From: Terriglobales bacterium
GTDB lineage: Bacteria > Acidobacteriota > Terriglobia > Terriglobales > Acidobacteriaceae
Direction: 5' to 3'
Assembly: GCA_035454605.1 (NCBI GenBank)
Contig: DATIGQ010000065.1
Location: forward strand, 1 to 41,125
Length of the DNA: 41,125 nt
How positions within the stretch are numbered: the first letter of the stretch is position 1; each line of letters begins with the position of its first letter. The translations under genes were made by a program, and so were the position numbers. Under the pieces are notes generated by a model that was not told where the DNA came from, made no database searches, and saw only the letters and a program-made list of their open reading frames with translations. Of the stretch, positions 787 to 39,957 are shown in pieces.

Positions 787-809
787 GCCCGGGTTCGCCA
801 GTCCCGGGC
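787..809. promoter_or_regulatory. Perfect 7-bp inverted repeat in the divergent mocA/coxM-like intergenic region
   Basis: GCCCGGG (787-793) and CCCGGGC (803-809) form a perfect inverted repeat with a 9-base spacer. It lies 37 bases before the FAD-subunit start, within the roughly 150-bp region between the divergent genes. It could be an operator or an mRNA hairpin in the leader. No convincing sigma70 promoter pair was found beside it; a TTGACT occurs at 765-770 without a good -10 at the right distance. Confidence 0.4.
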
Positions 810-845
810 GAATTCGGCCATCGGCCTCGCAGGAACCGGTATCCG

Positions 846-2223: not shown

Positions 2224-2224
2224 C

Positions 2225-2665
2225 ATGCCCATCAGTCTGGCGGGAGAATTCGAAGTCAAGAAGACGCCGGAGGAAGTCTACGACTTCCTCACCGACCCCA
2301 AGCGCTTCTGCCCGTTGCTGCCCGGCTACCAGGGTTCGACCATCGTGGACGACAAGAATTTCACGGTGAAAGTGAACGTCGGCGTTTCGCACATCCGCGG
2401 CACCGCCGAGGTGAAGCTCCGCCTGGCCGAAGCCGAGAAGCCCAAGCGCGCCCGCTATGAGGGCCAGGGGCGCATGGCCGGTTCCAACATGAGCCTCAAC
2501 GCCGGCTTCGACCTGAGCAACTCTTCCGGAGGCACCAAGGTCGCCTGGAAGGGCGAGTCGCAGATCTTCGGTGGGCTGGCCTCCATGGCCGGAGGCCTGC
2601 TCGAGCCTATGGCCAAGAAGAACATCCAGCAGGTCATCGACGGTCTACAGAAAGCCTTGAGCTGA
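2225..2665 (+). CDS. CoxG-like SRPBCC protein (molybdenum hydroxylase accessory)
   Basis: A 146-residue SRPBCC/START-fold protein of the CO dehydrogenase subunit G family (begins MPISLAGEFEVKKTPEEVYDFL; typical 'F...G...M..SNMSLNAGF' middle and amphipathic C-terminal helix). CoxG proteins bind the molybdenum hydroxylase and recruit it to the membrane or to quinone; the same role is inferred here from adjacency. It starts one base after the 2Fe-2S subunit stop and is the last gene of this plus-strand run. The large subunit lies about 2 kb further on, beyond two minus-strand genes. Confidence 0.88.
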   Translation: MPISLAGEFEVKKTPEEVYDFLTDPKRFCPLLPGYQGSTIVDDKNFTVKVNVGVSHIRGTAEVKLRLAEAEKPKRARYEGQGRMAGSNMSLNAGFDLSNSSGGTKVAWKGESQIFGGLASMAGGLLEPMAKKNIQQVIDGLQKALS

Positions 2666-2678
2666 GTCCGTTCCAGCC

Positions 2679-3557: not shown

Positions 3558-3586
3558 GTTACACTCCTCTGCCCATCCGCAGGCCG

Positions 3587-4624: not shown

Positions 4625-4673
4625 AATGCCTTGCCGCGTTCCGCATCACAGCGCGACCCTGGTAGAGGTGCGG

Positions 4674-4679
4674 TATACT
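4674..4679 (+). promoter_or_regulatory. Possible -10 element (TATACT) for the Mo-hydroxylase large subunit gene
   Basis: TATACT differs from the sigma70 -10 consensus by one base and lies 47 bases before the GTG start at 4726, in the divergent gap. No good -35 is visible 16-18 bases upstream, so this is a weak call. Confidence 0.3.
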
Positions 4680-4725
4680 CGCACGTCTCGCCGGACACCG
4701 AAATCGCCGATCAGGAGACCTGAAC

Positions 4726-8239: not shown

Positions 8240-8245
8240 AGCGAA

Positions 8246-22391: not shown

Positions 22392-23873
22392 ATGGAAGAT
22401 CTGTCCGCCCCGGTTGGCCGCGAACCTGAGGTTCGGCCCGCGGACGCCACGCACCCCCGCTTGCTCTTGGTGATCCTGCTGGCCGCGTTCGCGCTGCGCT
22501 TCGGCGCCGCCCTGCTCTCGCCGAACATGTTCTGGCCGGACGAGATCTTTCAGACGCTCGAGCCCGCCCACCGGCTGGCGTATGGCTATGGCATGGTGAC
22601 TTGGGAGTTCCGCGTGGGTGCGCGCTCCTGGGTGCTGCCCGCGGTTCTGGCAGGCGTGATGCGCCTGACCGACTGGCTGGGCCCGGGTTCCGAGGGATAC
22701 CTGGCAGGAATCGCGTTCTTCCTCTCGCTGCTGGCGACCGTGCCGGTCTATGTAGCCTGGCTGTGGGGCTCGCGCGTGGGCGGCACGCGCGCTGGCGTCG
22801 TGGCTGCGCTGGTCTGCGCGACCTGGCCGGACCTGGTTTACTTTTCGCCCAAGGCGCTCACCGAAGTCATTGCCGCACACCTGTTGCTGCCCGGCCTCTA
22901 CCTGGCGGTGGGATCGGAAGAAAAATCGCGCCGCACGCTGTTCCTGGCCGGATTGTTATGCGGGCTCGCGGCCGCCATCCGCATTCTCCTGGCGCCGGCG
23001 GTCCTCCTGGCCATGGCTTGGGCTTGCCGGCGCGAATTTCGGGCGCGCTGGCTTCCCATGGGAACCGGCGTCCTGCTTCCCCTGCTGTTCTTCGGACTGG
23101 TTGACGCCACGACCTGGGGCTATCCCTTTTACTCCTATTGGATGTTCTACTGGCAGAACCTCGTCGTGGGGAAGTCCCCGCAATCCGGGCTGGTTCCCTG
23201 GTACGGATACTGGAAAATGATGGGGCTGATCTGGGGATGGGCACGCCTGCCGTTCCTGGGCCTGGCTGCCCTGGGGGTGCGCCGCAGCGGATTCCTGGGC
23301 TGCATGGCGCTGCTGATCGTGTTCCAGCATTCCCTGATTCCACACAAGGAGTACCGCTACATCTTTCCCGCTGTCCTCCTGCTATGCGTGCTGGCGGGCT
23401 TCGGACTTTCCCTGCTCCGAGACTTCTTCCGACGCCGCTGGCAGCGCCTCTCGGTCCTGACGACGTCCGTCCTGCTGGCTTTCTGGCTGCTTCTCGCCGG
23501 CTACTTCGCCTATCGCCATGGCCCGTTCTTCCAGCAGCTTTCCGGGTACCTGCGTGCCATGTCCCAGGTCAGCCGCAGTTCGGACGCTTGTGGCGTGGGC
23601 TGGTGGAATGTTTCCTGGGCGGTGACCGGCGGGTACACGTACCTGCATCGCGACATCCCCGTCTATCAGGCGTGGGATGCAAAGGCGGAGGAGGTGCAAC
23701 GCTCCAGTTCGCTGGTGAATTACATCGTCACCCCCGACCCCCCGCCGGGAAAAATTCCCGGCTTCGAAGTGCTGTGGTGCCGGGATTACGCCTGCCTGCT
23801 GAAGCGGGAAGGCGCATGCGTGGCCCTCCCCGGCTACCACATCAATCGCATACTTGAGGAGCAGGGATTCTGA
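22392..23873 (+). CDS. GT22-like (Alg9/PIG-B type) polytopic mannosyltransferase, copy 1
   Basis: A 493-residue GT-C fold membrane glycosyltransferase with many transmembrane helices. The first lumen-facing loop carries the catalytic acidic pair and family signature in FWPDEIFQTLEPAHRLAYG followed by TWEF and RSW. HKEYRYIFP (about residue 318) matches the conserved 'HKE.RF' motif of GT22. Known GT22 enzymes use dolichol/polyprenol-phosphate mannose. The C-terminal, non-membrane part has spaced cysteines (DACGVGWW, WCRDYACLLKREGAC) and ends in GYHIN. A paralog of equal length lies at 29529. The ATG at 22392 is chosen from the position of the first helix. Confidence 0.82.
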   Translation: MEDLSAPVGREPEVRPADATHPRLLLVILLAAFALRFGAALLSPNMFWPDEIFQTLEPAHRLAYGYGMVTWEFRVGARSWVLPAVLAGVMRLTDWLGPGSEGYLAGIAFFLSLLATVPVYVAWLWGSRVGGTRAGVVAALVCATWPDLVYFSPKALTEVIAAHLLLPGLYLAVGSEEKSRRTLFLAGLLCGLAAAIRILLAPAVLLAMAWACRREFRARWLPMGTGVLLPLLFFGLVDATTWGYPFYSYWMFYWQNLVVGKSPQSGLVPWYGYWKMMGLIWGWARLPFLGLAALGVRRSGFLGCMALLIVFQHSLIPHKEYRYIFPAVLLLCVLAGFGLSLLRDFFRRRWQRLSVLTTSVLLAFWLLLAGYFAYRHGPFFQQLSGYLRAMSQVSRSSDACGVGWWNVSWAVTGGYTYLHRDIPVYQAWDAKAEEVQRSSSLVNYIVTPDPPPGKIPGFEVLWCRDYACLLKREGACVALPGYHINRILEEQGF

Positions 23874-23924
23874 GACGCACTCTCGGCCGCGGAGGAAAAG
23901 TGACGCGGCGCCGGAACCCTGCGA

Positions 23925-23930
23925 TATAAC
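23925..23930 (+). promoter_or_regulatory. Possible -10 element (TATAAC)
   Basis: TATAAC lies 15 bases before position 23940, where the next gene's coding frame could begin. No clear -35 is seen. If used, the transcript would begin at or near the coding sequence. Confidence 0.3.
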
Positions 23931-23993
23931 ATCAGGCCACTGGAATCCCCGCGCTCCATTTCGTGGCGGCCGGCGTCGGTAGCACTGCTGGGG

Positions 23994-25403
23994 TTGCTGG
24001 TCATGGCTCTGGTTGCGCCCGTGTGGATGGTGCCGCATCCACCTCTGGTGGATTATCCCAACCATCTGGCGCGCGCCTACGTCCTCGCCCACCTGGATGA
24101 TTCCGGCTTCGCGGAGTATTACGCCGCCGACTGGGGACTTCGCCAGTATCTGCTGATGGACCTGGTGCTGGTGGCGTTGCAGAAGGTCGTCAGCATCGAC
24201 GTGGCGGGACGCTTATTGCTGACTGTCGTGCTGCTGGCTCTGCCTCCGGCGGTCTGGTTCTTCCTGCGCGTCGCCAGTCCCGGACACGAGAGCTTGGCCG
24301 CCTGGTCGCTGCTGCTCTGCCACAATTTCTTCTTCCTCACCGGGCTGGTGAATCTGCAACTGAGCCTGGCACTGTGTTTCCTGGTATTGGGATTGTGGCT
24401 GCGCTATGTGGCCGCGCCACGGCCGGCGCGATGGGCGTGGCTCGCGATTTGCGCGTCGCTGCTCTACTTCACCCACGTCGTGGGGTTCGGCGTCGCCGCT
24501 CTGGCCGCGGCCTGGCTGGCCCTGCGTGTGCGCTGGGACCGCCGCGTGGTGGCGCGGGCCGCGGCGGCATTCCTGCCCGGCCTCCTGTTGTTCGTTGCCG
24601 CCAGTTCGGGCTCCGCAGCGTCGGCGGTGGAGTTCGGAAGTCTGGGGAGCAAGCCGCTCGTCCCGCTCATCGCCATCGAGGCCTACTCCCAGCCGCTCGA
24701 CTACGCGACTTTCGCCGTGATGGTCGCGGCCCTCTTCCTGGTCTGGTGGAAGAATCCAGAGTTCCGTTGGAACGGGCCCTGGCTGGAAATCTGCCTGCTG
24801 CTGTATCTGTTGTATTGGATCCTTCCGGTGCGCCTGTGGACGGGCACCTATGTCTACCTGCGGCTGGTGCCGTTTTACTGGGTGGCGGGGCTGGCTGCCG
24901 CGCGGCTGGGCCGGCGCGCTCGCTGGCTGCTGCCCGTGGCGCTGCTGCTGTTTGCGGTGCGCACCGTGCACCTCACCCGTCATTGGACCGCCCAACAGCC
25001 TTTCCTCGCTTCGCTCGCGCGCTCTTTCGATTCCGTACCCGAGCACGCTCGCGTACTGCCGCTGGTCCAGTGGCGCGGCGAGCAGAAACAGGTGCTGCTC
25101 GACTACTCCCACTTTTGGGCTTATGGAGTGATCGAGAAGCGCTGGCTCGTCCCCTATCTCTTCCACGATCCGGGGGTGCATCCGTTGCGAATCTCCCCAG
25201 CCGAATATGTGCCTGAGGCGGGTGCGTATCCACCCATGATCTATCGCGCACCGCCGGACTGGGAACAAGTGCGCCGCGACTACGACTACGTTTGGGCTTT
25301 CCATGTGCCGGAGTTCGAGGCGGAGCTGGCACCGATGGGCGCCGTGGCCTACGAGGGCGGCGACCTGAAGGTGTACCGCCTGCAGCGCGGAGGAGAGCGA
25401 TGA
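23994..25403 (+). CDS. Polytopic membrane protein, probable GT-C-like glycosyltransferase
   Basis: A protein of about 469 residues with around ten hydrophobic helices and a hydrophilic C-terminal domain (about 340-469). The loop after the first helix, PPLVDYPNHLARAYVLAHLDD, holds acidic residues where GT-C enzymes place their catalytic Asp, but I do not recognise a named family. The annotated TTG (23994) cuts into the first membrane helix. The frame stays open to 23904, and the helix would be complete if translation began near 23940 (a CTG), so the true N-terminus is uncertain. The stop overlaps the next start as ATGA, so it is coupled to the GT87-like gene. Confidence 0.65.
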   Translation: MLVMALVAPVWMVPHPPLVDYPNHLARAYVLAHLDDSGFAEYYAADWGLRQYLLMDLVLVALQKVVSIDVAGRLLLTVVLLALPPAVWFFLRVASPGHESLAAWSLLLCHNFFFLTGLVNLQLSLALCFLVLGLWLRYVAAPRPARWAWLAICASLLYFTHVVGFGVAALAAAWLALRVRWDRRVVARAAAAFLPGLLLFVAASSGSAASAVEFGSLGSKPLVPLIAIEAYSQPLDYATFAVMVAALFLVWWKNPEFRWNGPWLEICLLLYLLYWILPVRLWTGTYVYLRLVPFYWVAGLAAARLGRRARWLLPVALLLFAVRTVHLTRHWTAQQPFLASLARSFDSVPEHARVLPLVQWRGEQKQVLLDYSHFWAYGVIEKRWLVPYLFHDPGVHPLRISPAEYVPEAGAYPPMIYRAPPDWEQVRRDYDYVWAFHVPEFEAELAPMGAVAYEGGDLKVYRLQRGGER

Positions 25404-26635
25404 AAGTCCCGCGCCTCTTGCTCTGGTCGGCAGCAGCCCTGGTGCTCGCCTCCTATGCGATGTTCCTGTACAGGTCCAGAGAGCATGTGCGGCTCGGGTG
25501 GGTGGATTTCCGCAGCATGTACACCGCGGCATGGATGGTCCGAGACGGCGCGGGAGAGAGTCTCTACCAGGTTCCGGCGCAATCGGAGGCGTTCCGGCGC
25601 TACTCGCCCAATCCCATGCCACTTTGGTTCAATCACCCGCCATTCGAAGTGCCGCTCTTCCTGCCCTTCACCTACCTGACTTTTGGCCGTGCCTATGTTG
25701 CGTGGCTGGCGCTGAGCGTCGTACTGGTCGCGGCCTTGGCAGGAATTCTCGCGCGATTTTCGCTGGCGCCTTCCGGCCTGTCCAGTTTCGCCGTGACAGT
25801 CGCTTGTTTCACTTTCTTTCCCGTTTGGTACATGTTTCACGAAGGGCAGGATTCCATCTTTATCGCGCTCGCCTACACCCTGGCCTATGCAGCGTTGGTG
25901 AGGAATCGTGAGACTTGGGCCGGATTCCTGATGGGGTTGGGCTTGTATCGCTTCCACCTGGTGCTGCCGGTGATATTCGTCTTCCTGTTGCTGCGCCGGT
26001 GGCGGGTGCTGGGAGGATTTGCCGGTGCCTGCATCCTGCTGGGGCTGATCTCGCTGGCCGTGGTGGGATGGGAAGGGACGCTGCGCTATCCACAATTCCT
26101 GCTGGAGCTCAACCGCCATGACTCCTATGGAGTGATTGTGCCGTACCACATGCCCAACCTGCGGGGCCAGGCGTTGACTTTTGCAGCCTGGCGCATCCCT
26201 TCGGTGTGGATCGACGTGGGAGTGGCGCTGGTCTCACTGGCTGTCCTCCTGTGGGTGGCGGGAAGGTGGAAGCGGGCCGAGGCGCAGCATGCCACGACGT
26301 CTGGCCTGCTGATGGCGCTTACGCTCACGGTGACGCTGGTGTTGAGCTACCACCTGAATCTGCAGGACCTGGTGGTCCTGTTGTTGCCTCTTTCGCTCGT
26401 GGCTCAGCACCTATGGCAGACCAGGGACAGGAAGGGTCCGGCGCACCGGGCGCTGCAGATGTCCGCGGCCGCACTGTTCCTGCCCCCGGTGTACGAGATC
26501 CCGGAATGGCCTGACCGGACGCTGGTGCTGTTCTGCCTGCTGGTGTTGTTTGCTGCAGCCATCGCGGCGGAGGTCTCGGCCGAAGAAAAGGTCGCCGTGG
26601 CTGGCGAGCTCAAGCACGAGGATGGCATAGCGTGA
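25400..26635 (+). CDS. GT87-like polyprenol-phosphate-mannose-dependent mannosyltransferase, copy 1
   Basis: A 411-residue polytopic GT-C enzyme of the DUF2029/GT87 type (the PimE family). After helix 1 the sequence WVDFRSMYTAAWMVRDGAGESLY places an Asp in the catalytic position; FNHPPFEVPLFLPF and 'FHEGQDSIFIAL' are further family marks. In mycobacteria such enzymes transfer mannose from polyprenol-phosphate mannose on the outer face of the membrane. GGAGGAGAG precedes the ATG, which overlaps the upstream stop by 4 bases. The next gene starts inside its stop codon (GTGA). A divergent paralog is at 28197. Confidence 0.82.
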   Translation: MKVPRLLLWSAAALVLASYAMFLYRSREHVRLGWVDFRSMYTAAWMVRDGAGESLYQVPAQSEAFRRYSPNPMPLWFNHPPFEVPLFLPFTYLTFGRAYVAWLALSVVLVAALAGILARFSLAPSGLSSFAVTVACFTFFPVWYMFHEGQDSIFIALAYTLAYAALVRNRETWAGFLMGLGLYRFHLVLPVIFVFLLLRRWRVLGGFAGACILLGLISLAVVGWEGTLRYPQFLLELNRHDSYGVIVPYHMPNLRGQALTFAAWRIPSVWIDVGVALVSLAVLLWVAGRWKRAEAQHATTSGLLMALTLTVTLVLSYHLNLQDLVVLLLPLSLVAQHLWQTRDRKGPAHRALQMSAAALFLPPVYEIPEWPDRTLVLFCLLVLFAAAIAAEVSAEEKVAVAGELKHEDGIA

Positions 26636-28209
26636 ACGCCGGCCGCGACTTCGTGATCGCGTTGTCGTTCGCGAATCTGTGGTTCGGTCGTCTATGGCTG
26701 ACGCTGCTGAGCGACGAACTAGTCTATCCGCGCAAAGGCTCAATCGTTCCGAACCGAGTGGCGCTGCTGCTGAACGTACTGTTGATGGCGGCGATGTGCT
26801 GGCTGGCCATGCGTGTGGTGCGGCAGTCCGGAAGTGCGCGGGGGCTGAAGGCGGCGCGCTTCGCGGTGGTGCTGTTGTTACTCGCGAGCCTGCGTCCAGT
26901 CGAGATGGAAGCACCACTGGTGGAGTGGATGGGGAGATCGGCGATGGTTCTGATCCCCGGATTAATCTTGCTGCTGGCATGGGCCTGTGCCCAACGGCCA
27001 CGTGCGGCGCACGCGACGGCCATCCTGCTGTTGGTGCTCAGTCCGTTCGTCGCCGTGACCTTCGGGCGAGTCGTCCTCTCGATGTTCACGGCGGATCCCG
27101 CTCGCGTGGCCGACCGGCCCGCGGCGCCGCCCGTGCCACCTCGACCGGAGTACCCGAAGGTGGTCTGGGTGATTTTCGACGAGCTGGATGAGGCGCTGGC
27201 GTTCGATAAGCGCCCGCCCTCGGTGGCGTTGCCCGAGTTCGACCGTTTGCGCGCCCAGACCCTGGCCGCCAGCCAGGCATTTCCTCCCTCGCAAAGCACA
27301 GTGAGTTCGCTTCCGGCATTGCTGACTGGCAGGCTGGTGGCTCAGGGCTACTTTCATGGACCGGACGAGCTGTTGATCGATTTCCACGGGGCGGACGGCA
27401 AGGTGAAGTGGAGCGCTCAGCCTTCGCTGTTTTCGGTCGCGCGCGCCATGGGGATCAACGGCGCTGTCGTCGGGTGGTATCACCCCTACTGCCGCGTGTT
27501 GGCCTCCCAGTTCACCTCGTGTTTCTGGGATGAACTCATGGACTCGACCTTCGTCCTGCCGGAGACGCTGGCGGGCAGAATGCTGTTTCAAGCAGCTACC
27601 ATCCTGGAGGAGACGACACGTATAGGAAACCTCCGGCTGGTGGAATTCGACTGGGTCACGCAGCGGCAACGGAACGACAAGCGCCGGCAGCACCAGGTGC
27701 TGATGGAGCAAGCGCGCATCGCTCTGCAGCGCCCGGAACTGGGGCTGGTGCTGGTCCATCTTTCTGTTCCGCATCCGCCGGCGATCTACGACCGGGTAAA
27801 GGGAGACTACGCCCTCCGAAGCGGCCTGAGCTATCTGGACAACCTCGTGCTTGCCGATCGCGCCTTGGGCGAACTGCGGCGAGCGCTGGAGGAAAGCGGA
27901 ACCTGGGAGCGCTCGGTGGTGCTCGTCACTGCCGATCACGGCTGGCGGCGGCGGACCTGGGAGCGGCGGCGAGACTGGTCTGACGAGGATGAGCAGTGGT
28001 CCCATCGCGCCGGTTATCGTGTGCCCTTTCTGCTGAAGATGCCGGGCCAGGCTGCCCCTGTGTCCTACGATCAGCCGTTCAACACGGTGCTGACGTCCGG
28101 GCTGTTGCTGGCTGTCCTGCGGGGAGAGGTGGACGACGCAACAGCGGCCGCCACATGGCTCGATGGCCACCGCAGCCTCGGCCGCAGCCCGTACATTCAC
28201 GATCCGTGA
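26632..28209 (+). CDS. Membrane-anchored alkaline-phosphatase-superfamily protein (sulfatase/phosphoethanolamine-transferase-like)
   Basis: A 525-residue protein with about four N-terminal helices (within residues 5-152) and a C-terminal periplasmic sulfatase/phosphatase-fold domain. Metal-binding aspartates are in VIFDELDE (180-187). The nucleophile region is PPSQSTVSSLPALLTG with Thr223 as candidate; there is no CxPSR, so it is not a formylglycine sulfatase. The second metal site is in VTADHGW at about 432-438. Such architecture is shared by EptA-type phosphoethanolamine and LTA-type phosphoglycerol transferases and by the GPI ethanolamine-phosphate transferases. It begins at GTG 26632, overlapping the GT87 stop. 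Its stop overlaps the convergent GT87 paralog by 13 bases. Confidence 0.78.
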   Translation: MNAGRDFVIALSFANLWFGRLWLTLLSDELVYPRKGSIVPNRVALLLNVLLMAAMCWLAMRVVRQSGSARGLKAARFAVVLLLLASLRPVEMEAPLVEWMGRSAMVLIPGLILLLAWACAQRPRAAHATAILLLVLSPFVAVTFGRVVLSMFTADPARVADRPAAPPVPPRPEYPKVVWVIFDELDEALAFDKRPPSVALPEFDRLRAQTLAASQAFPPSQSTVSSLPALLTGRLVAQGYFHGPDELLIDFHGADGKVKWSAQPSLFSVARAMGINGAVVGWYHPYCRVLASQFTSCFWDELMDSTFVLPETLAGRMLFQAATILEETTRIGNLRLVEFDWVTQRQRNDKRRQHQVLMEQARIALQRPELGLVLVHLSVPHPPAIYDRVKGDYALRSGLSYLDNLVLADRALGELRRALEESGTWERSVVLVTADHGWRRRTWERRRDWSDEDEQWSHRAGYRVPFLLKMPGQAAPVSYDQPFNTVLTSGLLLAVLRGEVDDATAAATWLDGHRSLGRSPYIHDP

Positions 28210-29420
28210 GGTTGGTTCGTCTCTTGAGGGCGCTGGCGCGAAGTTTCCGCTGCCAGTCCGATCGTCAACAGCAGCAGCAACCAGAACATGGGATGCGGCA
28301 GCCGCATGCCTTCGGGCACGTAAAGCGTGGGCACGTACAAGACGACCATGGACGCCAGCAGCGCGGTGCGCGACCACCGGCGCTCGCCCCGCGTTGCCGC
28401 CAGATGCTGCGCCACCAGCGCCATCGCCAGGAAAAGCAGCGCGAGGTCGTGCGGATTCAGGTGGTAGCTCACCAGTAGGCTCACCATCAGGTTCAGCGCG
28501 AAAGCCAGGTCCAGCCGCGCGTCCGCCGCGTCTTCCGCCCGCGGCCACTTCCGCGCTGCTAGTATGAGCAACAGCAGTGACAGCGATGCGATCAGCACCG
28601 TCGGCCAGGGCGCCGGTAGCACGGTGCCTACGGACATCGTGACCGCTCCTCGCACATTGGGCATCGCCACCGGCCGGATGGCTCCGTAGGCCAGGCTCTG
28701 ATTGATTCCCTGCAGAAACTCGACGTATCGCCAAAGCCCAGTCCACCCCACCAGAAGCGCCGAAACTGCCGCCAACGCCGCGCCTGTCAGAACGAAGCCC
28801 CTCACCGCCGGCCACATCCTGCGCACGATGAGCGCGACCATGAAGGGAACTACCAACTGGAACTTGAACAGGCCCAACGCCAGAAAGCATCCGGCGCGGA
28901 ATGGTTGACCGCGGCGCAGAGCGATCCACGCCAGTGCGAACAACAGCAACAGCGGAATGGAGTCCTGTCCCTGCATCATGGCCCAGGCCACAGGGAACAA
29001 GGCGGCTGCCGCCACCAGCGTCGGCAGGCCGCGCAGGTAAGGAAACTGCCTTGTATAGGGATGTCGCAGGCAGGCCAGCCACACCAGCAACGCCAGGTTC
29101 ACTCCCATCCACGCAGCGTATGCATGAGGAAAAGGAAGCCACGCCAGGGGGAGCAGCAGGACCAGCTCGAATGGCGGATGGTTGAACAGCAGCGGCGTCT
29201 GCCTTCCCGCAAAGTTGCGCTGGTATTCCGCTTGTACGCGGGCGTCATAGAGGTCCGCGCCGCGTCCGTCGGCTACCAGGCGCGCGCCCGTGTAAAAAGC
29301 GGTGAAGTCCATTCTCCCTTCGAGAATTTTCTGCCGCAGACCGGCAACCATCCACAGGTAGGCAGCGAGCACGCTAACCAGTGCCAGCCACCACAGCGGC
29401 CTGAACCGGGAGTTCTTCAT
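28197..29420 (-). CDS. GT87-like polyprenol-phosphate-mannose-dependent mannosyltransferase, copy 2
   Basis: A 407-residue paralog of the protein at 25400, on the opposite strand. It shares 'MDFTAFYTGARLVADGRGADLY' (catalytic-position Asp), FNHPPFELVLLLPLAW, MMQGQDSIPLLLL, 'PNVRG' and SYHLNPHDLALL. The ATG at 29420 is preferred: it gives a short cytoplasmic lead into helix 1, while the longer in-frame extension would run through the divergent promoter region of the next gene. It is the only minus-strand gene in the glycosylation locus, which suggests an insertion or inversion of a duplicated gene. Confidence 0.82.
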   Translation of the reverse strand: MKNSRFRPLWWLALVSVLAAYLWMVAGLRQKILEGRMDFTAFYTGARLVADGRGADLYDARVQAEYQRNFAGRQTPLLFNHPPFELVLLLPLAWLPFPHAYAAWMGVNLALLVWLACLRHPYTRQFPYLRGLPTLVAAAALFPVAWAMMQGQDSIPLLLLFALAWIALRRGQPFRAGCFLALGLFKFQLVVPFMVALIVRRMWPAVRGFVLTGAALAAVSALLVGWTGLWRYVEFLQGINQSLAYGAIRPVAMPNVRGAVTMSVGTVLPAPWPTVLIASLSLLLLILAARKWPRAEDAADARLDLAFALNLMVSLLVSYHLNPHDLALLFLAMALVAQHLAATRGERRWSRTALLASMVVLYVPTLYVPEGMRLPHPMFWLLLLLTIGLAAETSRQRPQETNQPHGS

Positions 29421-29473
29421 CGCTGCCGGCAAGAGTATGGCACGGGCGCTCAACTGGCGGACCACACTGTTTC

Positions 29474-29504
29474 TTGACGGCGCAGCCTCTGATTCCACTA
29501 CAGT
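29474..29504 (+). promoter_or_regulatory. Possible promoter for the second GT22-like gene
   Basis: TTGACG (29474-29479) and TACAGT (29499-29504) are separated by 19 bases, longer than the optimal 17. They lie 25 bases before the GTG start at 29529, in the gap between divergent genes. Confidence 0.35.
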
Positions 29505-29528
29505 GGTTCGGCGGAACCAGGGGGAGGA

Positions 29529-31007
29529 GTGCACCAGAGACCCAGGGAGACAACCGAACCGGTTCCCGCTTCCCCTGCAACCCCGGCGAAGTCACGGCGG
29601 ATCGCTCTTCTGCTGGGATTGATCGTAGCCCTCGCGTTCTTCCTGCGGCTGGGCGCAGCCCTCGAGTTCCGTAGCCTTTTCTGGTCGGATGAAGTCTTCC
29701 AGACCCTGGAGCCTGCCCACAAACTTGCCTACGGCTACGGCATCACGACCTGGGAATGGCGCGAGGGCACGCGCTCTTGGGTAATGCCCGCGGTGTTGGC
29801 CGGCGTCATGCGGCTTTCCGAGGGGCTCGGTCCGGGTGCCAGCGGCTACCTGCTTGCCATCACCATCTGCCTCTGCCTCCTCTCACTTTCGCCCGTCCTG
29901 TTCGCATATTCTTGGGCAGCCCGCGTGGGACGGCCGGGGACCGGCCTGCTGGCGGCGGCCTTGTGCGCCGTGTGGTTCGAGCTCATCTTCTTCGCACCCA
30001 AGGCGTTCGCAGAGGTGATCGCTGCCCACGTATTCCTGCCCGGCCTGTTGTTTGCGGCCCAGGAGGAGCAGCGCCATAAGCGATGGTGCCTCTTCGCGGC
30101 GGGGATTCTGTTCGGCATCACGGTGGCGCTGCGCGTTCCTTATGTACCCGTCGTAGGTTTCGCCGCGATTTATCTCTGCCGCAATCATGTGCGGCAAAAG
30201 TGGCTGCCGCTGGCGCTGGGCCTGGCCCTTTCCCTCATCGCTTTTGGCGTAGTGGATGCCGTCACCTGGGGGTCTCCATTCCAAACGTTGTGGAAGGGGG
30301 TCTGGAGCAACGTGGCGCAGGCGAAGAGCGTGCAGTTTGGGGCCGCGCCCTGGTACGCCTACTTCGGATCGCTGGTTTGGGTCTGGTCCTGGGGATTTCC
30401 CCTGATCGCGTATTTCGCGGCGCTGGGGGCCAAACGCAGTCCATTGCTCTTCTGGCTGGTAGCGGTCTTGTTTCTCTCCCACTCCCTGCTCGCCCACAAG
30501 GAGTATCGCTTTCTTTACCTGCTGATTCCGCTTACTTGCGTGCTCGTGGCCTTGGGAATATCGGAGAAGATCGCGCGCTTTCCCAGACATCCGACCGCGG
30601 CGCTCACCGGCATGCTGGTGGCCTGGTGCCTGGGCTCGGCCCTGCTCGCCTGGAACTTCCGCCCCTACTGGACGGTGTACTCCGGCAACCTGCGCGCCTT
30701 TGAGCAGATGAGCCGTTCCCCGGATACCTGTGGCGTGGGTCTGCTCGGCGTACCCTGGAGCTGGACCGGCGGGTACACATACCTGCATCGCGACCTGCCC
30801 ATCCTGCAACTGGAGTTGCCGGGCGATCCCGAGCGCCTGAGCTCGCACTTCAACTACCTGCTGGCCTCGGATCGCGCCTCTTCCATACCGGCAGGCTTTG
30901 CGCGTCAATGGTGCTGGCGCGGTTCTTGCCTGTTCAAGCGGCCCGGCGACTGCACGCCGATGCCCGGCTATCACATCAATCAGGTTCTGCAGCAAAGAGG
31001 ACAGTGA
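29529..31007 (+). CDS. GT22-like (Alg9/PIG-B type) polytopic mannosyltransferase, copy 2
   Basis: A 492-residue paralog of the protein at 22392, with FWSDEVFQTLEPAHKLAYG, TTWEW, RSWVMPAVLAGVM and AHKEYRFLYLL in the same places. The C-terminal region repeats the pattern of copy 1: DTCGVG, TGGYTYLHRD, then WCWRGSCLFKRPGDC and GYHIN, so four cysteines are conserved between the copies and may form disulfides outside the membrane. Translation probably starts at GTG 29529, preceded by a GGGGGAGGA stretch. It presumably adds a hexose from a polyprenol-phosphate donor. Confidence 0.83.
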   Translation: MHQRPRETTEPVPASPATPAKSRRIALLLGLIVALAFFLRLGAALEFRSLFWSDEVFQTLEPAHKLAYGYGITTWEWREGTRSWVMPAVLAGVMRLSEGLGPGASGYLLAITICLCLLSLSPVLFAYSWAARVGRPGTGLLAAALCAVWFELIFFAPKAFAEVIAAHVFLPGLLFAAQEEQRHKRWCLFAAGILFGITVALRVPYVPVVGFAAIYLCRNHVRQKWLPLALGLALSLIAFGVVDAVTWGSPFQTLWKGVWSNVAQAKSVQFGAAPWYAYFGSLVWVWSWGFPLIAYFAALGAKRSPLLFWLVAVLFLSHSLLAHKEYRFLYLLIPLTCVLVALGISEKIARFPRHPTAALTGMLVAWCLGSALLAWNFRPYWTVYSGNLRAFEQMSRSPDTCGVGLLGVPWSWTGGYTYLHRDLPILQLELPGDPERLSSHFNYLLASDRASSIPAGFARQWCWRGSCLFKRPGDCTPMPGYHINQVLQQRGQ

Positions 31008-31023
31008 GCTCCGTCATGCGCCC

Positions 31024-33390
31024 ATGGGCCGTGTCGGTAAGAAAAAGATTTGCCCGGTGCCCGGAGATGCCGGAGAATCACTCGATGGAACGGGGAAGCG
31101 AGGTTTGAGCAACACCACTTCCGCCGCCAACCTCGCCGCGGCGCGGGCCAGCGGACTGGGCCCGCGCGCCGACCTGTTTCTGGTCAGCTTCCTGGTTCTG
31201 TTTCTCGAGCTGGCCTGCATCCGTTGGTTCCCGGCCCACGTCCTCTACCTTACGTTTTTCACCAACACGGTGTTGATGGCGTGTTTTCTGGGCATGTCGG
31301 TGGGATGCCTGGCGGCATCGCGCTCGCGCAACTACCTCATGGGCACGCCGGTGCTGTTGCTGGTCGCGGTTGCAGGCGGACAACTGGTGGAATACGCGCG
31401 GCACTCGATCGAGCGTGTGGTGGTCGTCGGCAACCAAGCCTCTCCGCAGCTGGTCTACTTCGGCACCGAGTACCGGGTGCAGGACCTGGCGCGCTTCGTG
31501 GTGCCCATCGAGGCCCTGGGCGGTGCGTTCTTCTTGGTACTGGCATTGGTCCTATTGGGTCCGGGACAGGAATTGGGCCGCTGCCTGGATAGGGTGCCGG
31601 ACCGGATTCAGGCCTACACCCTGAATATTCTGGGCAGCCTGGCGGGCATCGTTGCGTTCGCGTTGAGTTCCTGGTGGCAGCTTTCGCCGCTTGCCTGGTT
31701 TCTGGTCGTGGCCGCCTGCATGGCGTATCTCCTGCGCCGGCACTGCACGCGGCGGGCGCTGGTCGTGCGCGGCTCACTGCTGGTTCTGATTGCGTTCCTG
31801 GCCAGCCTTAGTGTCGCCGATTACCGCCGCACCGTCGAAGTCTTCTGGTCACCCTACTACCGCATTGACTACCAGTATCAACGGCGCCAGATCGTGGTGA
31901 ACCAGATCGGCCATCAGGGCATGGTGGCCAGCGGGGATGACCGTGCTCCCGCGTTCGCCTATTCACTGCCCCATCTGCTGCGGCGGGATTCCGGCGGGCC
32001 ACCCTTCGGCGACGTGCTCATCATCGGCGCCGGTTCCGGCAACGATGTGGCCCATGCGCTGCGTTGGGGCGCTCGCCATGTGGACGCGGTGGAGATCGAT
32101 CCGGTCATCAACCGGCTCGGCCGCCTGCATCATCCGGACCGTCCCTACGACGATCCGCGCGTGACCATCCACCTGGACGATGGCCGCAACCTCCTGCGTT
32201 CTACCTCGCGTCGCTACGATCTCATCATCTACGCCCTGGTCGACTCACTCGTCCTGCACAGCAGCTACAGCAACCTCCGCCTGGAGAGCTACCTGTTCAC
32301 ACGCGAGGCGTTCGCGGATGTGCATCGCCTGCTCAAGCCCGGCGGCGTCTTCGCCATGTACAACTACTTCCGGCAAGGCTGGATCGTGGCCCGGCTCGCG
32401 CAGGGTGTGGAGGAAACCTTCGGCGAACACCCCCTGATCCTGGCTCTGCCTTACAAGGAGCGTGTGCAGGAAACCCGCAGCGGTGGCTTCACCATGCTGC
32501 TGGCCGGCAACATCGCGCCGCTCCAGCAAGCCTTCCAGCAGCAGCCCGAATACTGGCTGCCAAGCGACCAGGCGCCGCGGCCGGATTCCCCGTCCGGCTT
32601 CCAGAACCGGCCGGACCCGGCAGCGCCCGATCGCTGGCTCCGCTTTGGCCTGGCCACGCTCGTTCCACCCGCCGACTTGCGCAGCGCTACCGACGAATGG
32701 CCTTTCCTCTACTTGCGTCGTCCTCTGATCCCGGACGTCGCTTGGCGGGGCATGCTCATCATGGGAGCGATTGCGCTGGTGTTGATCCTGCTCTTCCGGC
32801 CGCGCGAAACCGGGTCCGTTGCAGGCGGGCCCCGCTTCGACGGGCAGATGTTCTTTCTGGGCGCAGGCTTCCTGCTGATCGAAACCAAGGCCGTGGTGCA
32901 AATGGCGCTGCTGTTTGGAAGCACTTGGATGGTCAACAGCGTCGTGTTCTTCGCCGTGTTGGTGATGATCCTGCTGGCGAATCTGTTCGTGCTGCGGGTA
33001 CGACCTGCGCATTTGTGGCCGTACTACGCCTGCCTGCTGGCGGCGCTGGCTCTCAACTGCGTCGTCCCGCTGAACTGGTTCCTGGGCATGGACCGTACGT
33101 TGCAGGTGCTGGCTTCCTGTGCGCTCGTCTTTACTCCTATTCTGTTTGCGGGGATTGTCTTCGCCACCTGCTTCGCTCGCGTGCGCATGCCGGACCTGGC
33201 CTTCGGGGCCAACATTGCCGGCGCTATCCTGGGTGGCCTCTCCGAGTACACTTCCATGTTGATCGGATTCCGCTATCTGATGTTGTTGGCCATCCTCTTC
33301 TATGTGCTTTCGGCCCTGCTCCGGCCGCAGCCGTTCGTGGCGCCGGAGCCCGGGTCCGATGTCGCGGCCGCCGGATCCGCAGCCGCATGA
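31024..33390 (+). CDS. Polytopic membrane protein with spermidine-synthase-like SAM-binding domain
   Basis: A 788-residue protein of three parts: an N-terminal bundle of about seven or eight helices, a cytoplasmic Rossmann domain (about 320-470), and a C-terminal bundle of about six helices. The middle domain has GAGSGNDVAHAL (about 333-344), an acidic strand end VDAVEIDP, DDGRNLL and YDLIIYALVD, all typical of spermidine synthase/SAM methyltransferase folds. Membrane-fused versions are common in bacteria and usually of unknown function, so polyamine synthesis should not be assumed. ATG 31024 is used; TTG 31105 (in 'GLSNTT') is an alternative with GGGGAAG ahead. The stop overlaps the next start (ATGA). 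Confidence 0.75.
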   Translation: MGRVGKKKICPVPGDAGESLDGTGKRGLSNTTSAANLAAARASGLGPRADLFLVSFLVLFLELACIRWFPAHVLYLTFFTNTVLMACFLGMSVGCLAASRSRNYLMGTPVLLLVAVAGGQLVEYARHSIERVVVVGNQASPQLVYFGTEYRVQDLARFVVPIEALGGAFFLVLALVLLGPGQELGRCLDRVPDRIQAYTLNILGSLAGIVAFALSSWWQLSPLAWFLVVAACMAYLLRRHCTRRALVVRGSLLVLIAFLASLSVADYRRTVEVFWSPYYRIDYQYQRRQIVVNQIGHQGMVASGDDRAPAFAYSLPHLLRRDSGGPPFGDVLIIGAGSGNDVAHALRWGARHVDAVEIDPVINRLGRLHHPDRPYDDPRVTIHLDDGRNLLRSTSRRYDLIIYALVDSLVLHSSYSNLRLESYLFTREAFADVHRLLKPGGVFAMYNYFRQGWIVARLAQGVEETFGEHPLILALPYKERVQETRSGGFTMLLAGNIAPLQQAFQQQPEYWLPSDQAPRPDSPSGFQNRPDPAAPDRWLRFGLATLVPPADLRSATDEWPFLYLRRPLIPDVAWRGMLIMGAIALVLILLFRPRETGSVAGGPRFDGQMFFLGAGFLLIETKAVVQMALLFGSTWMVNSVVFFAVLVMILLANLFVLRVRPAHLWPYYACLLAALALNCVVPLNWFLGMDRTLQVLASCALVFTPILFAGIVFATCFARVRMPDLAFGANIAGAILGGLSEYTSMLIGFRYLMLLAILFYVLSALLRPQPFVAPEPGSDVAAAGSAAA

Positions 33391-34124
33391 CGCCCCATCC
33401 TCCTGTTCGCTTCTCGCTGGTGTTGCCCACCTACAACGAAGCGGCCAACATCGAGCGCATGGTGCCCTCGCTTCAGGAGGTATTCAGCGCGGCCAAGCTC
33501 GCGGACTATGAGATTGTCATCGTGGATGACGACAGTCCGGACGGAACGGGCTCCATCGCCGATTCGTTAGCCGCAGCCTCCGCCGGCCGCGTCCGTTCGC
33601 TGCGCCGCAAGGGGGAGCGCGGACTAGCCACGGCAGTCGTCGCCGGCTGGAAGACCACAAAGGCGCCGGTGCTGGCGGTGATGGATGCCGATGGCCAGCA
33701 TCCCCCGGAAGTGGTCCCACGCCTTCTCCAGGCTCTGGACCGCGGCGCGGACGTCGCCGTCGCCAGCCGCTACACCGCTGGCGGCGACATCCCCCGCTGG
33801 AACGTGGTCCGCCGGCTGGGGTCGAAGTTCGCCACCCTCCTCGTGCGCCTCGCTCTTCCCGCCGGCGTCCGCCACCTCCGCGACCCGCTCTCCGGATGTT
33901 TCGCCCTGCGGCGGGAAGTGATTGAAGGCGTGGAGCTGAAGCCTCTCGGCTTCAAGATTCTGCTGGAAGTGTTGCTCCGCGGGCGCGTGCACCGGCTGGA
34001 GGAAGTGCCCTACGTCTTTGCCCCGCGCACGGGAGGCAAGAGCAAGCTCGGCGCGCGCGTGGCCATCCTGGACGCCGTCCAGTTGCTGCGTTCTTCCTGG
34101 CAGAGCCGCCGGGGGCGGCCGTAG
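33387..34124 (+). CDS. Polyprenol-phosphate mannosyltransferase (DPM1-like GT2)
   Basis: A 245-residue GT2 glycosyltransferase without transmembrane helices, as in Dpm1/Ppm1 catalytic domains. It has LPTYNEAANIERMV near the start, DDDSPDGT (about 47-54), the DxD-like metal site MDADGQHPPE (about 99-108), SRYTAGGDIPRW, RDPLSGCFALRR and GFKILLEVLLRG. Such enzymes move a hexose (usually mannose) from GDP-sugar to polyprenol phosphate at the inner face. That is the donor GT22 and GT87 enzymes need, so this gene closes a self-sufficient locus. It overlaps the preceding stop by 4 bases and ends 3 bases from a convergent gene. Confidence 0.88.
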   Translation: MTPHPPVRFSLVLPTYNEAANIERMVPSLQEVFSAAKLADYEIVIVDDDSPDGTGSIADSLAAASAGRVRSLRRKGERGLATAVVAGWKTTKAPVLAVMDADGQHPPEVVPRLLQALDRGADVAVASRYTAGGDIPRWNVVRRLGSKFATLLVRLALPAGVRHLRDPLSGCFALRREVIEGVELKPLGFKILLEVLLRGRVHRLEEVPYVFAPRTGGKSKLGARVAILDAVQLLRSSWQSRRGRP

Positions 34125-36736: not shown

Positions 36737-37645
36737 CTACCTCAGCGCCGGCATCAGGTTCCGGATCAGCTGGATGGCCGCCGGACCCAGGCTGACGAAG
36801 AACATGGACGGGAAAATGAAGAACACCAGCACCGGCACCATCTTGATGGTGGTCTTGGCCGCGGCTTCCTCGGCCCGCTGCCGCCGCTCGGTGCGCAAGG
36901 CGTCGGAGTGCACTCGCAGCGCGGTGGCGATGCTGGTGCCGAACCGGTCGGTCTGGATGAGCACCGCCACCAGCGCCCGCATGTCATCCACGCCCGTGCG
37001 CACCGCCAGGTTGCGCAGTGCTTCCGCGCGCGGCTTGCCGGCCCGCATCTCCAGGTTCACCAGGCCGAATTCTTCGCTCAAATCCTTGTGGACGTGCCGC
37101 ATCTCATCGCCCACCCGCTGCACCGCCTGGTCCAGGCCCAGTCCTGCCTCCACGCAGATCACGGCCAGGTCCAGCGCATCGGGCAGTCCCAGGCGCAGGG
37201 CCATCTGCCGCGCCTTCACCTTCTGCCGCAGCAGCATGCTTGGGAACACATAGCCTAGCCCTATCAAACCCACCGCGAACATGGGGTCGCGCAGGAAGAG
37301 GTTTGTGCTTACCACCAGAATCACCGCCGCTCCCAGCAGCACCACACGCGAGCCGAAGTAGATGGTGGCGTGCCGCGGTTCGCGGAATCCCGCCTGCACC
37401 AGCATCAGCCGTGCCCGTGAAAGTTCTGCCGGGGACGTCGGCAGCGCCTTGGCCAGCGGCGATAGGGCCTGCTCCAGGCGTTCCTGCACCCCCGGCTTTT
37501 TCTCCTCGATGCGCACCCCGGTCAACGCCCGCAGGCGCGCGCCCAGCAGCGAAGCCGGCGACAGGGCCGCTGCCATCAGGAAAAAGAACGCCGCCGCCAG
37601 CGTAATGAACATCGCTGCCGCGATCAGTAGATTAGTCAGCGCCAT
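36737..37645 (-). CDS. tadC: Tad pilus inner-membrane platform protein TadC
   Basis: A 302-residue type II secretion system F-domain protein. Helices lie at about 4-28, 100-140 (two) and 272-298. The F domain between is marked by 'LPDALDLAVICVEAGLGLDQAVQRVGDEM' and 'LNLAVRTGVDDMRALVAVLIQTDRFGTSIATALRVHSDALR', and 'ERRQRAEEAAAKTTIKMVPVLVFFIFPSMF' closes it, as in TadC. With TadB it forms the membrane platform for the TadA motor. It starts 4 bases after the TadB stop. Confidence 0.92.
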   Translation of the reverse strand: MALTNLLIAAAMFITLAAAFFFLMAAALSPASLLGARLRALTGVRIEEKKPGVQERLEQALSPLAKALPTSPAELSRARLMLVQAGFREPRHATIYFGSRVVLLGAAVILVVSTNLFLRDPMFAVGLIGLGYVFPSMLLRQKVKARQMALRLGLPDALDLAVICVEAGLGLDQAVQRVGDEMRHVHKDLSEEFGLVNLEMRAGKPRAEALRNLAVRTGVDDMRALVAVLIQTDRFGTSIATALRVHSDALRTERRQRAEEAAAKTTIKMVPVLVFFIFPSMFFVSLGPAAIQLIRNLMPALR

Positions 37646-37649
37646 ATCC

Positions 37650-38618
37650 TCACACCCGGATCCGAATGATCCTGCGGATCAGAAAGAAGCCCATGGTTTG
37701 CATCACGACGCCCGCCGCGATCAGCCCGTGCCCGATCGGGTCCTTCCACAGCGGCTCGATGAACTTGTAGTCCATCCACGCCATCATGGCCACCACGCTG
37801 GGCGGCAGCAACATCAGGATAAGCAGCGTCAGCCGGCCCTGCGCCGTGTACACCCGCACCTGTCGCAGGATCTTGAAGCGCTCCCGGATCAGATAGGAAA
37901 GCTTGTCCAGGATTTCCGCCAGGTTTCCACCCGTTTCGCGCTGCAGCATCACCGTGGTGACGAAGAACTTCACGTCCACCAGGGGGACGCGCTCACCCAG
38001 GTTCAGCAGCGCATCGCGTACCGGCAAACCGTACTTCTGTTCCTCGAACAGCTTGCGGAATTCTCCCGATACCGGCTCGCCCAGTTCATTCCCGATCAGC
38101 TCGATGGCCGTGGTGAAAGCGTGGCCCGCTCGCGTGGCCCGGGCCAGCAGTTCGATGGCCTCCGGGAACATCTCTTCGAATTTCTGGAAGCGCCGCGCCC
38201 GTTTGTAGGAGTAAAAAAAGTAGGGCATCAATCCGCCCAGCGCGGCCATGGCTACCGCCAGGGGTGCGATGTTCGACCACTCCATGGTCAGCGCCCCGAA
38301 GACCATCGCCAGCGCGACTGAGACCATCAGGAACTTGCCGGCCCGTGTGCCGGTGTCTGCCTGGTCCAGAAAGTGTTGAATTTGCTTGACCCGCGGGGAC
38401 TGTTGCAGCACCCGGTTCAGGGCCGGAATCTCGCTCAGGATCTCGTCGCGCAGCAGCGCCAGTTCTTCGGAGTGGCCCCGATCCTGCGCCCGCTCCAAAG
38501 AGAGCAGCCGCTCGCGCATCGACCGCGCCCGCGCATCCCGCTCTTCGAAGGCCCCGGCCACCGTGAAGACCAGGATCACTATGAGGGTGAACAGCCCCAG
38601 GACGACGATATAGACCAT
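37650..38618 (-). CDS. tadB: Tad pilus inner-membrane platform protein TadB
   Basis: A 322-residue type II secretion F-domain protein. One N-terminal helix (2-23) precedes a charged cytoplasmic stretch. Two helices follow (about 95-137), then the F domain ('[41 protein letters not shown]', '[35 protein letters not shown]'), and two helices close it (about 265-317). It lies between tadA (27-base gap) and tadC (4-base gap). Confidence 0.92.
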
Positions 38619-38645
38619 GTACGCCTCTTCCTCTCGATGTCGGTC

Positions 38646-39941
38646 CTACACCACCACTTCGGTCTCAAACAGCGAAGAGGGCAGCCGATACCCGGCGGCG
38701 TTCAACCGGTCGGTGAACTTCGGTCGGATGCCCGTGGCCTTGAACGCTCCCCGCACCTTGCCGCGTTCATCCAGTCCTCGCCGCTCGAAGGTGAAAATCT
38801 CCTGCATGGTCACCACTTCGCCTTCCATGCCGGTGAGTTCGGCGATGCTGATCACCTTGCGGCTGCCGTCCGTCAGGCGCTGCACCTGCACAATGGCATG
38901 CAGCGCGGAAGCAATCTGCTGCCGGATGGAGCGGTCCGGGATGTTCAGGTTGGCCATCGAGACCATGTTCTCCACGCGGGAGAGCGCGTCGCGCGGCGTG
39001 TTGGCGTGCACCGTGGTCATCGAGCCCTCGTGGCCCGTGTTCATGGCCTGCAGCATGTCGAAGGCCTCGTCGCCGCGCACCTCGCCCACCACGATCCGGT
39101 CGGGACGCATGCGCAGCGCGTTGATCACCAGTTGTCTTTGCCGCACCGCCCCTTTGCCCTCGATGTTGGGTGGCCGGGTCTCCAGCCGCACCACGTGCTC
39201 CTGCTTCAACTGCAACTCGGCCGCGTCCTCGATGGTCACAATGCGCTCGGTCGAGGGGATGTAGCCCGACATCACGTTCAGCAGCGTGGTCTTGCCGGCG
39301 CCCGTTCCGCCCGAGATCAGGATGTTCAGCTTGCCCTTCACCATCGCCTTCAGAAGCTCCAGCATCGGTTCGGTGATGGATTTGTTGGCGACGAAGTCCT
39401 TGTCGGTCAGCGGGTCGCGCCCGAATCGGCGGATGGAGAGCGACGGCCCGTCAATGGCCAGCGGCGGGATGATGGCGTTCACACGCGAGCCGTCCATCAG
39501 GCGCGCGTCCACCAGCGGCGACGACTCGTCGATGCGCCGTCCCACCCGCGACACGATGCGGTCGATGATCTGCATCAGGTGGGCGTCGTCTTTGAAGCTC
39601 AGGTTGGTCTTCTCCAGCTTGCCCGCCCGTTCGATGTACACGTTGGCGTGCCCGTTCACCAGGATGTCGCTGATGGACGGATCCTTCAGCAGCGGCTCCA
39701 ACGGCCCCAGCCCGAAGATTTCGTCCAGGATCTCCCGCGCCAGGCGCTCGCGCTCGGCAAAGCTGAGCGGCACGGCTTCCGCGCTGACGGAATCCCGGAT
39801 GACCGCCAGCACCTCCTCCCGCGCCGTGTCGCTGGGCGCCTTGCCCAGCTTCTCCAGGTTCAGACGGTCCAGGATCTTGCGGTGCAGCGTGGACTTCACC
39901 TGCTGGTATTCGGTTCGCTCGAAGAAGGTTTGCAGTTCCAA
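38646..39941 (-). CDS. tadA: Tad pilus assembly ATPase TadA (CpaF)
   Basis: A 431-residue secretion ATPase that drives Flp pilin assembly. The N-terminal domain (about 40-180) has '[22 protein letters not shown]', and the RecA-like domain has Walker [10 protein letters not shown] (211-219), the Asp box '[14 protein letters not shown]', Walker B-region [12 protein letters not shown] (282-293) and the His box [15 protein letters not shown] (302-316). All catalytic motifs are intact. It follows tadZ after 16 bases. Confidence 0.95.
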
Positions 39942-39957
39942 CTAGTCTCTCCTCAGA

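What the first reader, a model, noticed from the sequence alone, without database searches (positions are those of the whole stretch)
22392..34124. Self-contained polyprenol-phosphate-mannose glycosylation locus with a GPI-like parts list
A DPM1-like donor synthase, two GT22-like proteins, two GT87-like proteins, a further polytopic protein and a membrane alkaline-phosphatase-superfamily protein lie together. In eukaryotes GPI assembly uses Dol-P-Man, GT22-type mannosyltransferases (PIG-B/PIG-Z) and alkaline-phosphatase-superfamily ethanolamine-phosphate transferases (PIG-N/PIG-O/PIG-G). A bacterial locus with all three classes could build a phosphorylated mannan-like lipid or protein glycan on the outer face of the membrane. 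The added spermidine-synthase-like membrane protein could modify it or the polyprenol.
Basis: partly seen in the sequence, partly recalled or inferred. Interest (0 to 1): 0.75.

Follow-up and report, generated by a model that had tools for sequence, protein, structure and literature searches.

The report
Bacterial mannose-lipid glycosylation gene cluster
A soil-type bacterium carries a genuine cluster of genes that probably make a mannose-carrying lipid and use it to add mannose on the outer face of its inner membrane, with enzymes related to those that build sugar chains in our own cells, but the suggested resemblance to the GPI protein anchor rests on one gene that is not a fixed part of the cluster.

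Summary
The gene inventory is real. P0008 (33387-34124) is a very good polyprenyl-phosphate-mannose synthase: 48% identical to the solved Pyrococcus enzyme, 15 of 16 mapped active-site residues kept. P0001 and P0006 are true GT22 proteins whose family profile matches ALG9 and a second solved GT22 mannosyltransferase. P0003 and P0005 are GT87, the PimE family. P0004 is a membrane protein of the alkaline-phosphatase superfamily with a threonine nucleophile. Best reading: a polyprenyl-phosphate-mannose-fed module that mannosylates an unidentified lipid or glycan outside the cytoplasmic membrane. GT22 is rare here (6 of 199 phylum genomes, 0 of 14 controls), but GT22 beside a DPM/GtrB-like synthase or beside GT87 recurs in distant bacteria. 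The GPI-like part fails: P0004 and P0005 are missing from the sister species' locus, no P0004 relative lies near any of about 76 other GT22 loci, and P0004's relatives often pair with a methyltransferase. P0007 is a decayed remnant in the sister species. The locus is not self-contained: GDP-mannose synthesis, four more GT87 genes and other GT-C genes lie elsewhere, and no flippase gene was recognised. Acceptor unknown; structure predictions failed.

The parts
22392..23873 (+). P0001, GT22 (ALG9/ALG12/PIG-B-type) membrane mannosyltransferase; orthologue 89% in sister species
   Evidence: Pfam PF03901 107 bits; GT22 invariants D50 Q54 E57, W71 E72, R78, H318 K319 E320; profile hits solved ALG9 and a second GT22 mannosyltransferase
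23994..25403 (+). P0002, polytopic membrane protein without Pfam match; conserved motif just after the first hydrophobic segment (VDYPNHLAR); GT-C-like by inference only; true start may lie a little upstream
   Evidence: homologues in 16 of 151 class genomes, none next to GT22/GT87 in the neighbourhoods listed; predicted structure too poor to use
25400..26635 (+). P0003, GT87 (PimE-family) mannosyltransferase; start overlaps the stop of P0002
   Evidence: PF09594 79 bits; GT87 profile hits PimE 9dm5; orthologue 67% in sister species
26632..28209 (+). P0004, membrane protein with alkaline-phosphatase-superfamily domain, Thr nucleophile (T223), ligands D183, D435, H436; accessory, not a conserved part of the locus
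28197..29420 (-). P0005, second GT87 protein, convergent with P0004, absent from sister-species locus
29529..31007 (+). P0006, second GT22 protein; orthologue 75% in sister species
   Evidence: PF03901 124 bits
31105..33390 (+). P0007, membrane protein with spermidine-synthase/methyltransferase-like Rossmann domain, lacking the DSSDP-type aminopropyltransferase signature; remnant in sister species
33387..34124 (+). P0008, DPM1-like polyprenyl-phosphate-mannose synthase, no TM segment
   Evidence: PfDPMS 5mlz E 8e-61, 48% identity, 15 of 16 mapped active-site residues conserved

Best explanation
A polyprenyl-phosphate-mannose-dependent extracytoplasmic mannosylation locus. P0008 transfers mannose from GDP-mannose to a polyprenyl phosphate on the cytoplasmic side. 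A flippase not encoded here turns the lipid over. The GT-C enzymes P0001 and P0006 (GT22), P0003 and P0005 (GT87) and perhaps P0002 then transfer mannose on the periplasmic face to a lipid or lipid-linked glycan, giving a short branched mannan or a mannosylated envelope lipid. The donor-synthase assignment is strongly supported by sequence. The mannose specificity of the GT22/GT87 enzymes follows from their characterised relatives. Flipping, acceptor and linkage are inferred or unknown. P0004 and P0007 are accessory at most.
For: P0008 keeps E12, D39, L69, D89, D91, Q93, H94, R117, G122, R131, S135, F177, K178, R202 and K208 of PfDPMS (residue roles PMC5526996) and matches PfDPMS far better than GtrB or ArnC (E 8e-61 against 2e-10 and 4e-14). 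GT22 signature residues are invariant across 31 sequences; the profile hits 9s6t (E 2e-18) and ALG9 9s6s (E 1e-12). The GT87 profile hits PimE (E 7e-6). The core P0001-P0002-P0003-P0006-P0008 is conserved in order in the sister species. Of nine GT22 loci outside the genus with a DPM/GtrB-like synthase in the flanks, seven have it within 250 bases of GT22 (P about 5e-9 by a simple position model; about 3e-5 counting four of six lineages). GT22-GT87 adjacency recurs in three alphaproteobacterial loci. A mannose-1-phosphate guanylyltransferase gene is present in the sister species and, cut by a contig end, in this genome.
Against: No bacterial GT22 with a tested activity was found in the literature searched. 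Most of the 76 GT22 loci have no DPM-like gene nearby. The neighbouring synthases are often GtrB-like proteins fused to GtrA whose sugar could be glucose or another hexose; L009's protein has DADLSH where DPMS has DADLQH. No flippase or acceptor gene was recognised in the locus. P0002 homologues elsewhere lie in other contexts. The PimE match covers positions 84-315 of the GT87 profile and so does not include its catalytic Asp.
Confidence: 0.68

Rival explanations
1. GPI-like phosphoglycan: the cluster builds a mannose chain that P0004 decorates with phosphoethanolamine or a similar phospho-substituent, as PIG-N/PIG-O do.
For: P0004 has membrane segments and an AP-superfamily domain with Thr nucleophile and metal ligands conserved in 12 homologues; the Thr sits where an S1 sulfatase has formylglycine; its start overlaps the end of P0003 by 4 bases, suggesting co-transcription.
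Against: Absent from the locus of the sister species, which keeps only two more distant paralogues elsewhere; absent from all other GT22 loci sampled; three paralogues in this genome lie away from GT genes, and relatives often pair with a SAM methyltransferase-like gene; profile hits are sulfatases, LtaP and phosphodiesterases, with neither EptA nor a PIG protein among hits with E up to 0.001.
Confidence: 0.08
2. Lipid A (LPS) mannosylation: bacterial GT22 proteins, including these, transfer mannose from polyprenyl-phosphate-mannose to lipid A or core at the periplasmic face. This is a narrower form of the best explanation, with a named acceptor.
For: GT22 genes were found in Bradyrhizobium, Acetobacter and Komagataeibacter. 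Bradyrhizobium lipid A carries two mannoses at C-4' (PMC7663294), and the acetic acid bacterium Granulibacter carries terminal mannose at C-4' of a lipid A type also reported in Acetobacter (PMC8036547). In those genera GT22 stands alone, with no O-antigen cluster recognised around it.
Against: Taxonomic coincidence only; Sphingobium and Zymomonas also have GT22; no lipid A structure is known to me for this lineage; the acceptor may differ between GT22 clades.
Confidence: 0.15
3. The GT-C proteins use another lipid-linked hexose, or act independently of each other, and the cluster is a loose collection of envelope genes in one genus.
For: The full set is limited to two sister species; P0002, P0004 and P0007 each have other neighbours elsewhere; the genome has many other GT-C genes.
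Against: Bona fide DPMS residues; recurrent synthase-GT22 and GT22-GT87 pairs in distant phyla.
Confidence: 0.2

Closest known systems
Dolichyl-phosphate-mannose synthase, Pyrococcus furiosus DPMS (5mlz) / human DPM1
   Same: 48% identity over the catalytic domain, DADxQH motif, acceptor-phosphate residues R117/R131/S135, A-loop R202/K208
   Different: no C-terminal TM domain (human DPM1-like in that respect); E206 replaced by Lys; no DPM2/DPM3 seen
GT22 mannosyltransferases ALG9 (9s6s) and 9s6t, with PIG-B and PIG-Z in the same family
   Same: polytopic, DE..Q..E, WE.R..RS and HKE.R signatures, profile match
   Different: bacterial, no N-glycan or GPI pathway known; acceptor unknown; they fall among bacterial GT22 proteins with cyanobacterial and acidobacterial kin
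PimE (GT87, 9dm5), polyprenyl-phosphate-mannose-dependent mannosyltransferase of mycobacterial PIMs
   Same: GT87 profile match over about 230 residues
   Different: weak match (28.7 bits); the catalytic Asp region lies outside the aligned stretch
Three-component periplasmic glycosylation systems (GtrA/GtrB/Gtr*, PMC11127046)
   Same: polyprenyl-phosphate-sugar synthase next to GT-C enzymes
   Different: no flippase gene recognised in the locus; up to five GT-C candidates; GT22/GT87 instead of O-antigen Gtr or GT136 enzymes
AP-superfamily membrane transferases (LtaS/LtaP, EptA, PIG-N/PIG-O)
   Same: N-terminal membrane segments, Thr nucleophile, Asp/His metal ligands
   Different: belongs to a separate family often paired with a SAM methyltransferase-like gene; only weak, partial profile hits to solved members

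Membership tests
DPM synthase (DPM1) | GT2 catalytic domain with DPMS-specific donor and acceptor residues | tested here: met
   15 of 16 mapped residues conserved, 48% identity to PfDPMS
DPM synthase (DPM1) | uses GDP-mannose and polyprenyl phosphate | not testable with these tools
   needs an enzyme assay; a GDP-mannose pyrophosphorylase gene is present
GT22 | PF03901 above curated cut-off and HKE / DE / WE signatures | tested here: met
   107 and 124 bits against 23.8; invariants; profile hits ALG9 and 9s6t
GT22 | polyprenyl-phosphate-mannose-dependent mannosyl transfer | not testable with these tools
   no assay; no tested bacterial member found
GT87 | PF09594 above cut-off | tested here: met
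   79 and 89 bits against 25
GT87 | PimE catalytic residues D58, K195, H322 | tested here: inconclusive
   profile alignment to 9dm5 covers 84-315 only; an invariant D36 sits in the first loop
GPI ethanolamine-phosphate transferase (PIG-N/O/G) or EptA | AP-superfamily domain with Thr nucleophile and metal ligands in a membrane protein | tested here: met
   D183, T223, D435, H436 invariant in 12 homologues; hydrophobic segments within 45-149
GPI ethanolamine-phosphate transferase (PIG-N/O/G) or EptA | closest to PIG-N/O/G or EptA in sequence or structure | tested here: inconclusive
   profile hits with E up to 0.001 are sulfatases, LtaP and phosphodiesterases, no EptA or PIG protein; structure prediction unusable
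GPI biosynthesis pathway | conserved linkage of DPM, GT22 and AP-superfamily transferase | tested here: not met
   AP gene missing from the sister species' locus and from all other GT22 loci sampled
GPI biosynthesis pathway | GlcNAc-PI transferase, deacetylase, PIG-M-like enzyme, transamidase | not tested
   none noticed among the genes of the cluster; not searched genome-wide
Three-component polyprenyl-phosphate-sugar system | synthase, flippase and GT-C enzyme encoded together | tested here: not met
   synthase and GT-C present, no GtrA or other flippase domain found in the eight proteins
Spermidine synthase (SpeE) | GGGDGG and DSSDP-type aminopropyltransferase motifs and NCBIfam cut-off | tested here: not met
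   48 bits against cut-off 260; GAGSGND and ALVDSLV at these places (motif roles from own knowledge)

The most novel reading that the evidence does not exclude
The locus makes a phosphorylated mannose-bearing membrane lipid on the periplasmic face, a bacterial functional analogue of the GPI core, with P0004 adding a phospho-alcohol substituent and P0007 methylating the glycan or the polyprenol.
Probability: 0.06. Interest if true: 0.8.

Novelty: new variant of a known kind. Interest (0 to 1): 0.42.

Why it matters
A 2016 survey described the ER-lumen mannosyltransferases ALG3, ALG9 and ALG12 as apparently unique to eukaryotes, with mostly PMT or DUF2029 (now GT87) proteins as distant prokaryotic relatives (PMC4973528). 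Here a bacterial GT22 group spread over several phyla is tied, in recurrent gene pairs, to polyprenyl-phosphate-sugar synthases and to GT87. If confirmed, this gives simple bacterial systems in which GT22 chemistry and the origin of the ER-lumen mannosyltransferases can be tested, and it suggests candidate enzymes for the mannose on lipid A of Bradyrhizobium and acetic acid bacteria. That bacterial sequences are listed in CAZy GT22 is known to me from memory, so the family's presence in bacteria is not itself new.

Tried and rejected
I tested whether P0002 defines a conserved GT87 partner: its homologues in the class have varied neighbours. I tested whether P0007 is fixed to the locus: its closest relatives lie next to YfhO-like genes or alone; only Sphingobium L052 repeats GT22-GT2-P0007. 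Literature searches for tested bacterial GT22 proteins found none. GT22 neighbourhoods in Bradyrhizobium and Acetobacter show no lipid A genes that I could recognise from the sequences listed. No tree with eukaryotic GT22 was made, because PIG-B and PIG-Z sequences were not at hand.

Full report
What is there. The region 22392-34124 holds eight genes, seven on the plus strand and one (P0005) on the minus strand. Pfam gives GT22 for P0001 and P0006, GT87 for P0003 and P0005, Sulfatase/AP superfamily for P0004, a spermine-synthase domain for P0007, GT2 for P0008 and nothing for P0002. P0001/P0006 are 44% and P0003/P0005 37% identical. The window is contig C65 of a 3.29 Mb draft genome; gene content and the nearest GT22 relatives suggest Acidobacteriota (inference).

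Donor synthase. P0008 matches the solved Pyrococcus furiosus dolichyl-phosphate-mannose synthase with E 8e-61, far above GtrB (2e-10) and ArnC (4e-14). Mapping the residues described for PfDPMS (PMC5526996) shows E12, D39, L69, D89, D91, Q93, H94, R117, G122, R131, S135, F177, K178, R202 and K208 conserved and only E206 changed. P0008 has no TM segment, like human DPM1. It is the only gene of the genome matching at E below 1e-40. A mannose-1-phosphate guanylyltransferase gene is present in the sister species and, cut by a contig end, in this genome, so GDP-mannose is plausible.

GT-C enzymes. A profile of 31 bacterial GT22 proteins has invariant D50, Q54, E57, W71, E72, R78, R197, D238 and H318-K319-E320 and finds two solved mannosyltransferases, 9s6t (E 2e-18) and ALG9 9s6s (E 1e-12). 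The GT87 profile finds PimE (E 7e-6), though the alignment misses the catalytic Asp region. The characterised relatives use polyprenyl- or dolichyl-phosphate-mannose on the non-cytoplasmic face (PMC6801728; PMC12041525).

Conservation. In the sister species (same genus) the order P0001-P0002-P0003-P0006-[P0007 remnant]-P0008 is kept at 89, 80, 67, 75 and 86% identity, while P0004 and P0005 are missing between P0003 and P0006 and P0007 is reduced to fragments. Among 60 relatives only this genus and one distant class member (two tandem GT22 genes directly after a GT2 synthase, L009) gave a strong hit, with a third genome giving a weak one. GT22 occurs in 6 of 199 phylum genomes and none of 14 controls. 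A scan of one genome for each of about 85,000 species found 224 related stretches, of which 79 loci were kept, in Cyanobacteria, Acidobacteria, Alphaproteobacteria and others. In the tree the window pair falls with cyanobacterial and acidobacterial GT22 proteins (SH-aLRT 97), and P0001 and P0006 each pair with their sister-species orthologue, so the two copies predate the split of the two species.

Linkage. Nine GT22 loci outside the genus have a DPM/GtrB-like synthase in their flanks; in seven it lies within 250 bases of the GT22 gene, where a random position would give about 4% each (P about 5e-9 for loci, about 3e-5 for four of six lineages; the model is simple and related loci are not independent). 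GT87 genes directly follow GT22 in three alphaproteobacterial loci, twice as tandem pairs. Sphingobium L052 has GT22, GT2-GtrA and a P0007 homologue (35% over its length) in a row. P0004-like genes occur near none of these.

The AP-superfamily gene. P0004 keeps the nucleophile and metal ligands D183, T223, D435 and H436 in all 12 proteins aligned, and the Thr aligns with the formylglycine position of an S1 sulfatase, so it is probably a phospho-transferase or phosphodiesterase, not a sulfatase. Its family has three further members in this genome and homologues in 24 of the other 150 class genomes searched, and several of the closest lie beside a SAM methyltransferase-like gene. The sister species has only two more distant paralogues, neither in this locus. 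It is therefore not evidence for a conserved GPI-like assembly line, though a local role cannot be excluded.

Acceptor. Unknown. A candidate is lipid A: GT22 genes occur in Bradyrhizobium and acetic acid bacteria, where lipid A with mannose at C-4' has been described (PMC7663294; PMC8036547). This is a coincidence of distribution, not a test. Protein or polysaccharide acceptors are equally open for this organism.

Verdict. A real and fairly unusual polyprenyl-phosphate-mannose-fed glycosylation locus; the donor step is strongly supported, the GT-C mannosyl transfer follows from homology, and flippase, acceptor and product are unknown. The GPI analogy is not supported beyond the shared GT22 and DPM1 families.

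Noticed in passing
window 26632-28209; L130 8402-11487, L142 7208-10176, L145 8696-11700, L174 1468-4508: P0004's family forms a recurrent two-gene unit with a methyltransferase-domain protein beginning 'FRDPxG', of unknown function, in several genomes of the class; a better starting point for a study of P0004 than this locus.
   Followed up: partly
L065, L066, L068, L080, L081, L085-L087, L089 (Bradyrhizobium), L062, L072, L074 (acetic acid bacteria): Stand-alone or synthase-paired bacterial GT22 genes occur in groups where mannose on lipid A C-4' has been reported; candidates for a lipid A mannosyltransferase.
   Followed up: partly
L009 4848-7001: A membrane protein with TPR-like repeats, resembling eukaryotic TMTC O-mannosyltransferases in layout (by eye), directly follows two tandem GT22 genes and a GT2 synthase.
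   Followed up: no
window 31105-33390; L008 about 8000-8430 (-): The fused membrane/spermidine-synthase-like gene is intact here but decayed to fragments in the sister species; close relatives elsewhere lie next to YfhO-like membrane proteins.
   Followed up: partly
window 36737-41121 (-): Tad/CpaF-type pilus genes (two TadB/C-like, CpaF-like ATPase, CpaE-like) near the locus, by reading of the sequences.
   Followed up: no
window 405-7248: Molybdenum hydroxylase (CO/xanthine dehydrogenase-type) medium, small and large subunit genes with a CoxG-like gene, by reading of the sequences.
   Followed up: no
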